Below, piece after piece: positions 7,511 to 15,999 of a stretch of DNA of 64,000 bases. The DNA comes from Paramagnetospirillum magnetotacticum MS-1 (GTDB lineage Bacteria; Pseudomonadota; Alphaproteobacteria; Rhodospirillales; Magnetospirillaceae). The notes beneath the pieces were generated by a model. The model saw nothing but the letters and a program-made list of their open reading frames with translations, ran no database searches and was not told the origin of the DNA. Every line of letters starts with the position of its first letter. The first letter of the stretch is position 1. The DNA is taken from positions 69,501 through 133,500 of the forward strand of contig NZ_JXSL01000030.1 of assembly GCF_000829825.1 (NCBI RefSeq), in the 5' to 3' direction. Position numbers and translations under genes: made by a program.

Positions 7511-8481
<971 letters not shown>

Positions 8482-10989: not shown

Positions 10990-11196
10990 ATGAAGGTCGC
11001 GGCCATTTCATTCAACGACAACCATAGCCTCAGCATGGATGTGGAAGGGGTCCGTTCTATCGGCGCCGCCCAGCCCCTGGAACTGGAAGACGGCTCCTGG
11101 TTCATGGAACTTTTGATCCGCACCGGCAACGGCACCGTCGCCCTGCAACTGGTCGCCGAGTCCAGGGATAAGCTGGACATCATCCGCTACGAATAG
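10990..11196 (+). CDS. small conserved-looking hypothetical protein
   Basis: A 68-residue protein with a good ribosome site (AGGAGAG eight bases before ATG). It is soluble and mostly beta in appearance, with alternating hydrophobic residues (WFMELLIRTGNGTVALQLVAES). There is no signal peptide, no cysteine and no recognisable motif. It stands alone between the kinase and a convergent barrel-Hint gene. The codon use matches its surroundings, which with the strong start supports a real gene. Function unknown. Confidence 0.6.
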   Translation: MKVAAISFNDNHSLSMDVEGVRSIGAAQPLELEDGSWFMELLIRTGNGTVALQLVAESRDKLDIIRYE

Positions 11197-11279
11197 CGCT
11201 CCCCCCCCCCGCAATCACCACTGCCGACCAGCCATTATCCCAGAACCGCTTCGTCGTCCTCACGGCGCCATCAAAGCAC

Positions 11280-12653
11280 TCACTCCTCAGGAGCGCCTGG
11301 CGGCCTTGCGTTGTATCCCGCCAGGAACTGCTCCCTGGTCGGCCCATCCCCATAATTATGCACGTAATAGCCGCTGGCGACGTAGGTATTGTTCCCGATT
11401 AGATGGAGGTTGTAGACCACCGTTTCGGCAGGCGCGTCTTGTGACTCGATGGAACGCAGATCGACCGGGCCGCCGACGGTGATCAGGGTGTCACCGATGA
11501 CAAGTTGAGTGACATTCAGGGCCGGATTGATCCGGTTGGTTACGTCCGGATCCAAGGACTTCCAGCCTCCGCTCGTCAGGAAAGGATGGTCCGCCGTCAC
11601 GAAGAAATCCAGACTGTTAAGCGCATAGAGCCGACGCCCGTCGAGGCGCGGACGCCCGAATCCGATAACCTCGTTGATGGTGCCGTCCGTCCCTTGGACC
11701 TGCTCACCAATCTCCACGGTTTCAATTGCCTTCTCGCTGCCGTCAGCCATGCGGACGGGAGTTCCGGCGACGAAGCAACTGACGCTGGGAGCCGGAGTGC
11801 TTTGCTGAGGGGCGGCATGGGCTGCTGCCGTGGAGGTCAACACGCTGCCACCACCACCACCGGCATTGGTGAAGGAGACGATGTTCTCCGGGTCTCCGTG
11901 GCGATCCCGGTCCTTCAGCGAGGTCCCGGCATTTCCGAATGTGTAGCGCATGCCGAGCAGAGCGAAGCCTGGACCGGTATTGCCAGCGCCGGTGACGCCG
12001 AACATTGTCCAGGGAATCGAATCGTCCGGTTTCCATTCGATGATGGAATATCCCGTCCGGCTGTTGCTGAAGCCAGCACCGCCGAGCGTCAGCTTCAGAT
12101 CGTCGCGCGAGTACCATGACAGCGCCAATCCGCCATAGCCCGACGAACTGGTGCCTTTGTTGGCGTCGCCACGCTGGATGCCCGCCGACGAGGACAGGGT
12201 ATAATCGTCCAGGTAGGCCTCGGCTTCCAGGCCATGCCGGAAGATGTTCCAGGCGCCGACGCGCGACCACATGGTCGTGAGCCCCACCATGGCCTGATTG
12301 GGGTCGCGCCAGAAGATATGACCACCAAGCCCCCCCTGCCCACGCTCTCCACTTTGGCCGAGCGCCCCGTCAAGCTGTAAGCCGAAACTGTGACCAAGGG
12401 GTGCCGTACCCGTGATCGCCAAGAATTCGGACGGCTTGCCGCCGACAGAACCACCCGAGCCGTCAACTGTCAGGACAGGGGCAGAGACGGCCCTGTCGTC
12501 GCCAGCAAACACTTTGCCTCCGTGGAAGGCGGCACTGCCCGCAAAGAGCGCCACGCCAAACATCAGGCCCAAGGCCGTACGGCCGACACCACGAAATGCC
12601 GAATGCCTTACCGGCACAGCATGAAAATTTGATGCGGTCGAGCGGTTCATCAT
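11280..12653 (-). CDS. outer-membrane beta-barrel protein fused to a C-terminal Hint (intein-like) domain
   Basis: 457 residues. The N-terminus carries an extended leader with a hydrophobic segment (TALGLMFGVALFAGSAAF), consistent with export. Residues about 60-260 are Gly/aromatic-rich amphipathic strands ending in LLGMRYTFG, like an outer-membrane barrel. After a Gly/Ser/Ala-rich linker, a Hint domain runs from Cys293 (CFVAGTPVRMADGS) through the block-B motif VTADHPFL to the terminal His432-Asn433 (YYVHN), followed by Tyr and a 24-residue tail. These are the catalytic residues of bacterial intein-like autoprocessing domains; the residue after HN is not Ser/Thr/Cys, so cleavage rather than splicing is expected. 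It faces a response-regulator gene divergently. Confidence 0.8.
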   Translation of the reverse strand: MMNRSTASNFHAVPVRHSAFRGVGRTALGLMFGVALFAGSAAFHGGKVFAGDDRAVSAPVLTVDGSGGSVGGKPSEFLAITGTAPLGHSFGLQLDGALGQSGERGQGGLGGHIFWRDPNQAMVGLTTMWSRVGAWNIFRHGLEAEAYLDDYTLSSSAGIQRGDANKGTSSSGYGGLALSWYSRDDLKLTLGGAGFSNSRTGYSIIEWKPDDSIPWTMFGVTGAGNTGPGFALLGMRYTFGNAGTSLKDRDRHGDPENIVSFTNAGGGGGSVLTSTAAAHAAPQQSTPAPSVSCFVAGTPVRMADGSEKAIETVEIGEQVQGTDGTINEVIGFGRPRLDGRRLYALNSLDFFVTADHPFLTSGGWKSLDPDVTNRINPALNVTQLVIGDTLITVGGPVDLRSIESQDAPAETVVYNLHLIGNNTYVASGYYVHNYGDGPTREQFLAGYNARPPGAPEE

Positions 12654-12851
12654 TAAGTCCCCATATCTCCGTGTCTAGGGCCCATGTCTTTCTCCATCTT
12701 AACGGAAGGCCAATCAGTCACTGAAACACGTAGAATTGACGATGATTCGACGGAAGTTCGATGAGCCACCGCATTGCCTTCACTCTTTCCATCGGAAAAC
12801 CGACCCGGCATTATCCAGGCCAGGAGCCCGGCTGCGTTACGGAGGCCAAGG

Positions 12852-13544
12852 ATGGGGACGATCATCGTCGTCGAGGATGATGCCGATCTGCGCGAGCAGA
12901 TAGTGACCTACCTGTCTTTGTCGGGCTTCACGACCGCTGGTGTTGGCTCGGCGGCCGAACTCTATCGTCGCATGGCGGTCGAGGTGTTTGGCGTTCTCAT
13001 CCTGGACCTACGGCTGCCGGATGAGGATGGCCTGTCCATCGCGGCCCATGTGCGGGCACACAGCAAGAGCGGCATCATCATGGTCACCGCCAGGAACCAT
13101 GTCGAAGACCGCGTGCGTGGGCACGACGCAGGTGCCGACGCTTATCTTTCCAAGCCCGTGGATATGCGGGAGCTGGTCGCCGCAGTCAAAAGCCTGTTCC
13201 GCCGCCTGGGAGATACCGCACACCCGGCTGACCGGGGCGAAAGCTGGTGCCTGGACCGCGCCGCCTTCACCTTGTTCACACCTGGAGGCCTGTCGGTGGC
13301 GGTCACGCCCAATGAACTGTCACTGCTGCGGGAATTGGCGGAGTCGTCCTGCACCGTGGTCGGGCGCGGCGCCTTGCTCGGCGTTCTCGGATACGATCCA
13401 AGCGACGTCGGCAACCGCAACCTGGACGCCGCGTTGCGTCGCCTGCGCCTCAAGGTCGCTGAAAAGACCGGTGCTTCCCTGCCGATCCGAACCGTCAACT
13501 CGGTCGGCTATATGTTTTCCGAGGAAATGAACATCCGCGGCTAA
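12852..13544 (+). CDS. OmpR-family response regulator
   Basis: A 230-residue two-domain regulator. The receiver domain starts IIVVEDDADLREQIV with the acidic pocket, has the phospho-acceptor Asp in LILDLRLPDEDG and the conserved Lys in DAYLSKPVDMRE. The C-terminal winged helix ends with the typical RTVNSVGYMF wing. The start at 12852 is chosen because GGAGG lies seven bases upstream; the frame is open for 26 further codons before it but without such a site. It is convergent with the 7TMR-DISM kinase, whose gene ends within four bases of this one, so the two are probably a cognate pair. The divergent barrel-Hint gene may be its target. Confidence 0.9.
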   Translation: MGTIIVVEDDADLREQIVTYLSLSGFTTAGVGSAAELYRRMAVEVFGVLILDLRLPDEDGLSIAAHVRAHSKSGIIMVTARNHVEDRVRGHDAGADAYLSKPVDMRELVAAVKSLFRRLGDTAHPADRGESWCLDRAAFTLFTPGGLSVAVTPNELSLLRELAESSCTVVGRGALLGVLGYDPSDVGNRNLDAALRRLRLKVAEKTGASLPIRTVNSVGYMFSEEMNIRG

Positions 13545-15460
13545 GCCACCGGAATGGTCAGCGCGAAGGATGCTCCGCCCCCATCCCTCGGCCGATATGC
13601 CACCGTCCCTCCGTGCATGGTGGCGATGGTCTTCACCAGATGCAGGCCGATGCCGAAGCCTGAGGTCGATCCGCTGAGGGGACTGCGATAATACCTGTCG
13701 AAAATCAGTTCGGCTTCGTCCGGGCGCACGCCCGGCCCACGGTCCAGGACCGTGAAAATGATCCATCCGCCCAGCGCCTGGGCCACGACATCGACCGGCT
13801 GGTCGGCCGGTCCGTAGCGATGAGCGTTATCGATCAGGGCGTCCAGGGCGATTCCCAGCAGGGCACTATCGGCAAGGCATGTGTCCGGCAGAGGTGACAT
13901 CTCGGCCCTGATCTCGCCGCGCCCTGTTTCCCGGTCCCGCGCCACGGCCTGGGCGGCGATGGCGGCCGGAGAAACCGGGCGCAGGTTAAGCTCCATTGCC
14001 TCGCTCCGCTCGCCATTCAGGCAGGTTTCGATCAGACCAACCAGTCGGGAAACCGCTTTGCGGATGGTGTTGAAACGGCGGGTGGCCTCGGGTGGGGCCG
14101 TTGGAAGCAACAGTTCAAGGACCTGAACCGCGCTGTCGATGACTGCCAGTGGAGTCTTGAATTCGTGCGTCGCCATGTCCACGAACGTCCGTTGGCGTTC
14201 CCGCGCCATCTTTTCGAGGACCAGGGCTGCGTCGGCTTGGGCTTGCTGCTGCCGCGTCACCACGAAGCGGTAGCCCAAGGCGAGAAAAAGAATACTGAGA
14301 TGGATCATGGTGGCGATTATGTCGACCTGACGTCCCAGATCGAACGGGATGGTCGGAAAAACCAGTGCGCCGACCTCGACGCCCCAAAGCAGGACGATCG
14401 GAAAGAAGGCGCAGAGGTAGAATCTCAATAGAACGTCGCCGGGGTGACGCAGCACGAGAATGAAAGCCATCGTGATGCTGCCGATGCTGACAGCCAGCAT
14501 GATCACTTGGGCATACTGGGCCAGAAGTGAAAAACTGTCGTGCGTCGCGAAAAATATGGGCGCCAGCATCAGGATGCCGCCCCAGCGGTAAACGCGGTGC
14601 ACCAACGGAAATTCCTTCCTGATATCAAACATCAGGTCCCACATGATCATGAAGGCGGAGATGCCGCCAAACAGACCAATGGCACTGAGCAGATAGTTCA
14701 GGGGCCGACCGGCATCGGAAAGAATCACGGTGACGATGCCTGAATGGGTCGCTTCACGGCACATGCTCGTCACCACGAAAACGGCGTACATCAGCATGGA
14801 CGCATCCCGCAGCCAAAGGCCGAGCAGGATATTACTCACCACGAACACAGCCATGACGCCGAAATCGATACCGTGAAGCGCCGACTGGCGGGCTTCCGCA
14901 TAGGCCAAGGCAGTCGGGCGCCACAGCGCCGCCGCCTCGAAGCGAATCTTGTGTAGCGACGACAGCCGGATGTAAACCGTCGTCGGAATCTCTTCGGGCA
15001 GGGAAAGGTTGGCCGCGTGGAGACGTACCGCCACATCCAACTGCCGCGCGGGAAGCCGTCGGCCGAGAAGGGTTTCCGTGAAGCTACCGCCCGGCTTCGT
15101 CACATAGACCCGGACATCGTCGATATCCGGCTCTCCGAACGCCAGGACCCAGTCCTCAGCTGCCCCTGCCGTCCGCTTGACGGTGAAGCGGTACCACAAG
15201 GTCCCGCCGCTAATAAGGCCAGGACGGCGCGGTGTTACCGCCTCGAAAACGCCGTGCCGTGCCACATCCTCAATGCTGAACGCGCTTTCCCGGTCTTCCA
15301 GGAAGGTCAGATATCCATCCAGCGGGCGGCTAGCCGTCTCGACGGCGACAGTTGCGGGCAATGGTTCGGCATGGGCGGCGGACGCTCCGAACAGTCCCAC
15401 CAGGAGCAGCAAGCCAAGGAATGCAAGCCTGCACCATCTGCCCCGGGAACCCCCAGCCAT
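13541..15460 (-). CDS. 7TMR-DISM sensor histidine kinase
   Basis: A 639-residue membrane kinase. It has a signal peptide (LAFLGLLLLVGLFGASAAHA), a periplasmic DISMED2-type carbohydrate-binding-like beta domain (about 35-180, with GGTLWYRFTVKRT and DIDDVRVYV), seven membrane helices (about 195-410), a HisKA box with His in MATHEFKTPLAV, and an HATPase with ALIDNAHRYG and FGIGLHLVK. The start at 15460 is preferred because it begins directly at the signal peptide. Its stop overlaps the end of the convergent OmpR-type regulator gene by four bases. Such kinases usually sense carbohydrates or envelope ligands; the ligand here is unknown. Confidence 0.9.
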   Translation of the reverse strand: MAGGSRGRWCRLAFLGLLLLVGLFGASAAHAEPLPATVAVETASRPLDGYLTFLEDRESAFSIEDVARHGVFEAVTPRRPGLISGGTLWYRFTVKRTAGAAEDWVLAFGEPDIDDVRVYVTKPGGSFTETLLGRRLPARQLDVAVRLHAANLSLPEEIPTTVYIRLSSLHKIRFEAAALWRPTALAYAEARQSALHGIDFGVMAVFVVSNILLGLWLRDASMLMYAVFVVTSMCREATHSGIVTVILSDAGRPLNYLLSAIGLFGGISAFMIMWDLMFDIRKEFPLVHRVYRWGGILMLAPIFFATHDSFSLLAQYAQVIMLAVSIGSITMAFILVLRHPGDVLLRFYLCAFFPIVLLWGVEVGALVFPTIPFDLGRQVDIIATMIHLSILFLALGYRFVVTRQQQAQADAALVLEKMARERQRTFVDMATHEFKTPLAVIDSAVQVLELLLPTAPPEATRRFNTIRKAVSRLVGLIETCLNGERSEAMELNLRPVSPAAIAAQAVARDRETGRGEIRAEMSPLPDTCLADSALLGIALDALIDNAHRYGPADQPVDVVAQALGGWIIFTVLDRGPGVRPDEAELIFDRYYRSPLSGSTSGFGIGLHLVKTIATMHGGTVAYRPRDGGGASFALTIPVA

Positions 15461-15543
15461 GAGTCCGCTCTTCCGCTCGAAACTGTGTATTAAACAGTAT
15501 GTTGGCGCCCGATTTCGGGCAATGCGCAATGACTATACATTCG

Positions 15544-15999
15544 TTAAGTCCTTGATTTTTCCTCCCAGCCCCCGCGTTCTGTCTGTTGATAATAGACCAA
15601 TTCGTGGCCCTCTGCCTTCCAGCGCTTCCAGCGCTCGCGCGCCTTCTCGACCGCTTCGGCATCGTTGCCGTCGAACAGGTCCAGGCAACGCTGGAACGCG
15701 CCCACCCGCTCCGAGGCCGAGCCGTCGCACATCACCAGGATGGTGGCGCCGTTGGGATTCTCGTCGGTGTGGGTCAGCCAGATGGGCTGCATCTCGGCCT
15801 CGCCGTCACGGGCCGAGCCATGGGGCAGCCAGGAATCGGGCTCGTAGGTCCACAGGCGCCCGTTCAGATCCTCGACCCGCTCTTGCGATCCGGCCAGCAC
15901 CACGGCGCGAAAGCCCGCCGCCAGCGCCTTGTCCAGCAGTTTGGGCAATGCCTGTTCCAGCGGCAGGCGCATCAGGTGGTAAAAGCCGATCTGGGTCAT
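15544..15999 (-). CDS. holC: DNA polymerase III subunit chi
   Basis: A 151-residue accessory subunit of the clamp-loader complex that links the replisome to single-strand-binding protein. Recognised from the family pattern: an N-terminal IGFYHLMRLPLEQALPKLL, then AAGFRAVVLAGSQERVEDLN and LWTYEPDSWLPHG, and the C-terminal KARERWKRWKAEGHELVYYQQ. The length fits the family. It lies between an unrelated kinase and a divergent glycosyltransferase, so it is probably transcribed alone; in many alphaproteobacteria it follows pepA, and two M17 aminopeptidase genes lie 1.1 kb away here. Confidence 0.93.
   Translation of the reverse strand: MTQIGFYHLMRLPLEQALPKLLDKALAAGFRAVVLAGSQERVEDLNGRLWTYEPDSWLPHGSARDGEAEMQPIWLTHTDENPNGATILVMCDGSASERVGAFQRCLDLFDGNDAEAVEKARERWKRWKAEGHELVYYQQTERGGWEEKSRT

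What the first reader, a model, noticed from the sequence alone, without database searches (positions are those of the whole stretch)
11280..15460. Outer-membrane barrel fused to a self-cleaving Hint domain, beside its own two-component pair
Seen: a 457-residue protein with an export leader, a barrel-like region ending in RYTFG, and a Hint domain from Cys293 to His432-Asn433 with the block-B TADH motif. Known: these residues drive N-S acyl shift and Asn cyclisation in inteins and bacterial intein-like proteins; a non-nucleophilic residue after HN favours cleavage. Inference: the barrel could release or attach a C-terminal product at the cell surface. The flanking OmpR regulator (divergent) and 7TMR-DISM kinase form a locus that may sense and control it.
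Basis: partly seen in the sequence, partly recalled or inferred. Interest (0 to 1): 0.72.

Follow-up and report, generated by a model that had tools for sequence, protein, structure and literature searches.

The report
Outer-membrane barrel carrying known self-cleaving domain
A magnetic bacterium makes an outer-membrane pore protein that ends in a self-cutting protein module; the module was already cloned and tested in 2004, and what is new here is that it hangs on a 12-strand pore, probably on the inner (periplasmic) side, inside a small acquired three-gene insert.

Summary
Window 11280-12653(-) encodes a 457-residue exported protein: a confidently modelled 12-strand outer-membrane barrel, a 37-residue linker, a Hint domain with every invariant catalytic residue (Cys293, TADH353-356, His432-Asn433), then 24 residues. 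An OmpR-type regulator (divergent) and a 7TMR-DISM kinase sit beside it. The assembly matches Magnetospirillum magnetotacticum MS-1 exactly (4,523,935 bp, 36 contigs, same largest contig). A review reports that 'the M. [quoted passage not shown] This genome's only hit to this Hint profile has Tyr434 at +1, so the Hint is almost certainly that published A-type bacterial intein-like domain. Additions: about 100 relatives of the barrel lack Hint, and the closest end where Cys293 begins, so N-terminal cleavage would regenerate an ordinary family member. Barrel topology puts the Hint in the periplasm, not at the cell surface. The three genes form one 4.35-kb insertion absent from four congeners, with lower GC3. 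The trio is not conserved intact anywhere searched; one decayed remnant joining regulator and Hint/tail survives in another genus. Likely function: self-trimming of the barrel; attachment to an amine is not excluded.

The parts
11203..15557 (.). Insertion of about 4.35 kb holding the three genes, between a 68-aa gene (10990-11196) and holC (15544-15999)
   Evidence: Four congeners have the 68-aa gene and holC end to end about 13 bp apart; alignable flanks stop at TACGAATAGCGC and resume at TTTTTCCTCCCAGCC; GC3 of the three genes 0.71-0.77 against 0.81-0.83 in flanking genes
11280..12653 (-). Barrel-Hint gene, 457 aa
12504..12653 (-). Signal peptide, residues 1-50 (predicted by eye)
   Evidence: Hydrophobic run ALGLMFGVALFAGSAAF then VFA|GDD; barrel relatives also begin with a leader-like N-terminus
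11937..12476 (-). 12-strand beta-barrel, residues 60-239
   Evidence: AlphaFold2 pLDDT 93; Foldseek E 8e-8 to KdgM porin, also intimin/invasin translocators
11889..11909 (-). Conserved post-barrel motif RDRHGDP, residues 249-255
   Evidence: Arg and Asp-Pro nearly invariant in 84 relatives
11778..11888 (-). Linker, residues 256-292 (37 aa), equal in length to the natural C-terminus of the nearest relatives (34-38 aa)
11355..11777 (-). Hint / A-type BIL domain, residues 293-433
   Evidence: PF05203 above cut-off; 16 invariant columns in 41 Hints all met; fold match to BIL structures
11775..11777 (-). Cys293, N-S acyl-shift nucleophile
   Evidence: invariant in A7; only Cys in the protein
11586..11597 (-). 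Block B TADH, residues 353-356
   Evidence: T and H invariant in A7
11355..11360 (-). Block G His432-Asn433
   Evidence: invariant in A7
11283..11354 (-). 24-aa C-terminal tail YGDGPTREQFLAGYNARPPGAPEE with Tyr434 at +1
   Evidence: 15 of 24 residues kept in the decayed remnant L005; pN 0.20 against pS 0.87
12654..12851 (.). Shared divergent intergenic region; imperfect 20-nt direct repeat at 12702-12721 and 12750-12769 (possible regulator sites, untested)
12852..13544 (+). OmpR-family response regulator
   Evidence: Response_reg and Trans_reg_C above cut-offs
13541..15460 (-). 7TMR-DISM sensor histidine kinase, tail-to-tail with the regulator (4-bp overlap)
   Evidence: 7TMR-DISMED2, 7TMR-DISM_7TM, HisKA, HATPase_c above cut-offs

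Best explanation
This is the A-type bacterial intein-like (BIL) domain of Magnetospirillum magnetotacticum MS-1, carried as a C-terminal extension of a 12-strand porin-like outer-membrane barrel. Proposed mechanism: after Sec export the barrel inserts in the outer membrane with the Hint on the periplasmic side. Cys293 makes an N-S acyl shift at the Ser292-Cys293 bond, and water or an amine resolves the thioester, leaving a barrel with the C-terminus usual for its family. Asn433 cyclises and releases the 24-residue tail. Tyr434 cannot take over the acyl group, so the outcome is cleavage, not splicing. Shown: barrel and Hint by sequence and model, intact catalytic residues, genome identity, insertion of the trio. 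Reported by others: the M. magnetotacticum BIL does not splice unless Tyr+1 is changed to Cys. Inferred: that the published BIL is this one, the periplasmic location, cleavage in the living cell, and control by the neighbouring regulator and kinase.
For: Assembly size, contig number and largest contig (1,344,907 bp) equal those published for MS-1. Review PMC4031507: type A BILs have HN ends, mostly cleave, and the M. magnetotacticum BIL needed Tyr+1 to Cys to splice. The window Hint is the only hit to this Hint profile in the genome and has Tyr at +1, a residue seen at +1 in no other Hint read here apart from the remnant L005. All 16 columns invariant across 41 Hints are present. Closest folds are BIL domains 6y75, 6tmm and 2lwy. 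Barrel model pLDDT 93, 12 strands, fold of KdgM. The linker ends exactly where the barrel's nearest relatives end: 37 aa after the DP motif against 34-38 aa.
Against: The 2004 paper is not in the library, so its protein could not be compared letter for letter. The MS-1 assembly then available was heavily contaminated with Methylobacterium sequence, so 'the M. magnetotacticum BIL' could in principle be a contaminant, although Tyr+1 argues against that. Block F His is replaced (GNNTY), which may weaken Asn cyclisation, although that His is not required in all inteins. No cleavage data for the native barrel protein are known to me.
Confidence: 0.7

Rival explanations
1. Conjugating barrel: the thioester at Ser292 is taken by an amine (peptidoglycan, aminolipid or a protein lysine), so the Hint covalently anchors the barrel in the periplasm instead of only releasing it.
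For: The closest fold match, Tetrahymena BIL2, makes isopeptide bonds to lysine. Hint relatives in bacteria and viruses nearly always carry Lys at +1 (61 of 63 distinct viral Hints, the other two Arg), consistent with amine chemistry in this clade. The conserved post-barrel motif and linker would sit near the cell wall.
Against: The window protein has Tyr, not Lys, at +1. No acceptor is encoded next to it. The reported behaviour of the M. magnetotacticum BIL is failure to splice.
Confidence: 0.1
2. Inverse-autotransporter-like: the barrel threads the Hint and tail to the outside, where autocleavage releases the tail or the Hint.
For: Intimin and invasin translocator barrels are 12-stranded, carry their passenger at the C-terminus and are among the best fold matches (TM 0.62-0.63).
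Against: The better match is the KdgM porin. None of about 100 barrel relatives read has a recognisable passenger: most end within 20-70 aa of the barrel. A folded Hint would have to cross unfolded.
Confidence: 0.08
3. Decaying extra: the Hint is a recent chance fusion on a standalone barrel and does nothing useful.
For: Singleton architecture; its relative in G019 is a pseudogene; the sample of intact copies is one.
Against: All invariant Hint residues are kept. Over the last 43 codons shared with the remnant, pN is 0.15 against pS 0.85, so Hint end and tail were under selection for a long time.
Confidence: 0.12

Closest known systems
Magnetospirillum magnetotacticum BIL (Southworth, Yin and Perler 2004, via review PMC4031507)
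   Same: Same organism; type A; Tyr at +1; does not splice unless +1 is Cys
   Different: Probably identical; could not be compared letter for letter, and the host protein as described there is unknown to me
A-type BIL domains, e.g. Clostridium thermocellum BIL (PDB 2lwy)
   Same: Cys1, block B TxxH, C-terminal HN, non-nucleophilic +1; fold match TM 0.79 over target
   Different: Host proteins differ; block F His missing here
BIL2 of the Tetrahymena BUBL1 locus (PDB 6y75, 6tmm)
   Same: Best fold match, E 1.8e-10
   Different: Eukaryotic ubiquitin-like host; forms isopeptide bonds to lysine
KdgM/NanC 12-strand porins
   Same: 12-strand barrel, TM 0.82 over target
   Different: 12-13% identity; no Hint; no RDRHGDP motif known to me
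Intimin/invasin inverse autotransporters
   Same: 12-strand barrel with a C-terminal extension
   Different: No Hint; lower fold score; relatives of this barrel carry no passenger
Hedgehog (Hog) autoprocessing domain
   Same: Hint at the C-terminus of an exported protein
   Different: No sterol-binding region here; Hog uses only the N-S acyl shift, whereas this Hint keeps the C-terminal HN

Membership tests
Hint/intein fold | Hint fold with Cys1 and block B Thr-x-x-His | tested here: met
A-type BIL | C-terminal His-Asn | tested here: met
   HN432-433, invariant in A7
A-type BIL | No Cys/Ser/Thr at +1 | tested here: met
   Tyr434
A-type BIL | Lies in a variable, non-conserved bacterial protein, not in an essential enzyme | tested here: met
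   Exported barrel protein; Hint absent from all other barrel relatives
A-type BIL | N- and/or C-terminal self-cleavage | not testable with these tools
   Needs expression; literature reports no splicing until Tyr+1 is Cys
Canonical class 1 intein | Cys/Ser/Thr at +1 and extein ligation | tested here: not met
   Tyr434 at +1
PT-HINT / pretoxin system | PT-HINT profile match and a C-terminal toxin domain with immunity gene | tested here: not met
   No PT-HINT hit in the genome; only 24 residues after HN
12-strand outer-membrane barrel | Signal peptide and closed antiparallel barrel | tested here: met
   12 strands, pLDDT 93, fold of KdgM; closure inferred from fold match, coordinates not inspected; signal peptide judged by eye
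Inverse autotransporter | C-terminal passenger secreted through the barrel | tested here: inconclusive
   Fold similarity only; no passenger in relatives
Dedicated barrel plus two-component locus | Trio conserved across genomes | tested here: not met
   No intact trio among 55 family genomes; one decayed regulator-Hint remnant

The most novel reading that the evidence does not exclude
The Hint is not just a self-trimming end. On a signal sensed by the 7TMR-DISM kinase, the barrel is made as an activated thioester in the periplasm and is covalently joined to an amine of the envelope, an ATP-free bacterial counterpart of the lysine conjugation reported for BIL2, with the released 24-residue tail as a second product under selection.
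Probability: 0.07. Interest if true: 0.75.

Novelty: already known. Interest (0 to 1): 0.35.

Why it matters
The self-processing module itself is a published BIL. The useful additions are its native context: a 12-strand barrel that would be restored to normal family length by one cut, a periplasmic rather than surface location, an acquired and possibly regulated three-gene insert, and a tail kept by selection. Together they turn 'what are BILs for?' into a simple test in a culturable organism.

Tried and rejected
Pretoxin HINT: no profile hit in the genome. Toxin or effector at the C-terminus: only 24 aa follow HN. Phage or plasmid origin of this gene: no phage record matches; plasmid records hold only a Roseibium barrel without Hint and other Hints without barrel. 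Trio as a conserved system: rejected. The kinase as a relocated congeneric orthologue: unlikely at 47-51% identity, where flanking genes are 74-97%. Promoter-like hits: one overlaps the start codon and the count is near chance. Alignment A4 was too diverse to search with. The tail alone found no relative in 399 genomes drawn across the phylum. The 2004 paper is not held. The remaining fold search against viral structures was left unused because the PDB answer was clear.

Full report
OBSERVATION. The gene at 11280-12653(-) encodes 457 residues. From N to C it holds a Sec-type leader (about 1-50, judged by eye), a barrel region, the motif RDRHGDP (249-255), a 37-residue linker, a Hint domain from Cys293 to Asn433, and a tail of 24 residues beginning with Tyr434. 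Pfam recognises the start of the Hint as Hom_end_hint above its cut-off; PDB sequence search finds PI-SceI and other inteins at the same place. Cys293 is the only cysteine of the protein, as one would expect of an exported protein whose single thiol is catalytic. The neighbours are as described: an OmpR-type regulator at 12852-13544(+) and a 7TMR-DISM histidine kinase at 13541-15460(-), tail to tail.

THE GENOME. The genome searched as G000 has 4,523,935 bases in 36 contigs, and the window lies on a contig of 1,344,907 bases. The MS-1 genome paper gives exactly 4,523,935 bp, 36 contigs and a largest contig of 1,344,907 bp (PMC4384492). The window is Magnetospirillum (now Paramagnetospirillum) magnetotacticum MS-1.

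THE HINT IS PUBLISHED. [quoted passage not shown] The window Hint is the only one its profile finds in the genome, even at E 10, and its +1 residue is Tyr. Among the other Hints read here Tyr is at +1 only in the decayed relative L005: Lys or Arg in 63 distinct viral ones (61 Lys), mostly Lys and sometimes Cys, Ser, Thr, Trp or Asn in bacterial ones. I infer that this is the published BIL. Two cautions: the paper is not held, and the older MS-1 assembly was heavily contaminated with Methylobacterium sequence.

THE HINT IS INTACT. Across 41 related Hints, 16 columns are invariant and the window has all of them, including Cys, block B Thr and His, block F Tyr-Asn and block G His-Asn. The AlphaFold2 model (pLDDT 86) is closest to BIL domains: Tetrahymena BIL2 (6y75, 6tmm) and Clostridium thermocellum BIL (2lwy).

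THE BARREL. No Pfam or PHROG family covers it. Relatives occur in 8 of 55 family genomes, in 80 kept loci of the named genome collection, mainly Hyphomicrobiales with some Methylomonas and Verrucomicrobia, and in 10 of 385 genomes drawn across the class. AlphaFold2 with 84 sequences gives 12 strands, pLDDT 93, pTM 0.87. The best fold match is the 12-strand porin KdgM; intimin and invasin translocators follow. With an even number of strands both ends face the periplasm (general knowledge of outer-membrane barrels), so the Hint is expected in the periplasm.

THE FUSION. None of the roughly 100 other barrel frames read carries a Hint. The nearest relatives (same family of bacteria) end 34-38 residues after the conserved Asp-Pro; in the window, Cys293 follows after 37. 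The Hint thus sits where the family normally stops, and an N-terminal cut would restore an ordinary family member. This agreement in length is the strongest sequence argument for self-trimming, but it is an inference.

HINT RELATIVES. The same Hint clade occurs at or near the C-terminus of other exported proteins in the order: a FecR-domain protein ending HNCG, two proteins of one genome ending HNK, and leader-Hint proteins followed by Asp- or Gly-rich tails. It is frequent in viral contigs (123 relatives), usually followed by Lys and often by a second Hint.

THE TRIO IS ONE INSERT. In four congeners the 68-aa gene and holC are direct neighbours; in MS-1 about 4.35 kb with all three genes lie between them. 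GC3 is 0.71-0.77 in the insert against 0.81-0.83 in flanking genes, pointing to acquisition. No transposase or integrase lies inside. Another genus of the family keeps a decayed junction on one contig: the N-terminal part of the regulator (about 50 closely matching residues) runs into the last 43 residues of the Hint gene (72% identical). Between that remnant and the window, pN is 0.09 against pS 0.82 for the Hint end and 0.20 against 0.87 for the tail, so both were under selection and the tail is not filler. The sample is small and saturated at silent sites. Otherwise the linkage is weak: full-length kinase relatives at 47-51% lie without barrels beside them, and only 2 of 80 named barrel loci have a detectable kinase within 2 kb, at limited sensitivity, although two family genomes (M. 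fulvum L013, and L108) do have a barrel beside a different two-component pair.

CONCLUSION. An A-type BIL, already known and tested, in a native context whose description I could not find: a probably self-trimming 12-strand barrel in an acquired, possibly regulated insert. The cell-surface reading is disfavoured, and control by the pair remains open.

Noticed in passing
L236-L315 (viral contigs): A Hint clade related to this one is common in viral contigs, and the residue after HN is Lys in 61 of 63 distinct sequences (Arg in the other two), often followed by a Gly-rich stretch and a second Hint. A conserved +1 Lys is unusual for a BIL and could mean amine (isopeptide) chemistry.
   Followed up: partly
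L111 6865-8913, L112 7269-9275, L110 6765-7931: Exported bacterial proteins (Tat or Sec leader; FecR domain in one) that end at the Hint itself: HNK-stop or HNCG-stop, leaving no C-extein. L111 has two Hints in tandem.
   Followed up: partly
L015, L109 and L112: Similar gene sets suggesting related mobile elements (a replication-initiator-like gene, paired genes of about 600 and 284 aa) carry a barrel relative in G017 and a Hint protein in G315, so the two modules may travel on related elements.
   Followed up: no
L013 8534-10318: Magnetospirillum fulvum has two tandem copies of the barrel gene directly downstream of a different two-component pair.
   Followed up: no
L113 6826-7845, L114 6839-7831: Hints with Cys and TxxH but VVDGF in place of VHN, in near-identical multi-gene blocks of two genomes; N-cleavage only would be expected.
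   Followed up: no
window 7511-8481: Two adjacent bacterioferritin-like genes overlapping by 4 bp.
   Followed up: no
window 12654-12851: Imperfect 20-nt direct repeat (75%, 48 bp apart) and an 8-nt perfect inverted repeat next to the two divergent start codons (GTCCCCAT / ATGGGGAC).
   Followed up: no
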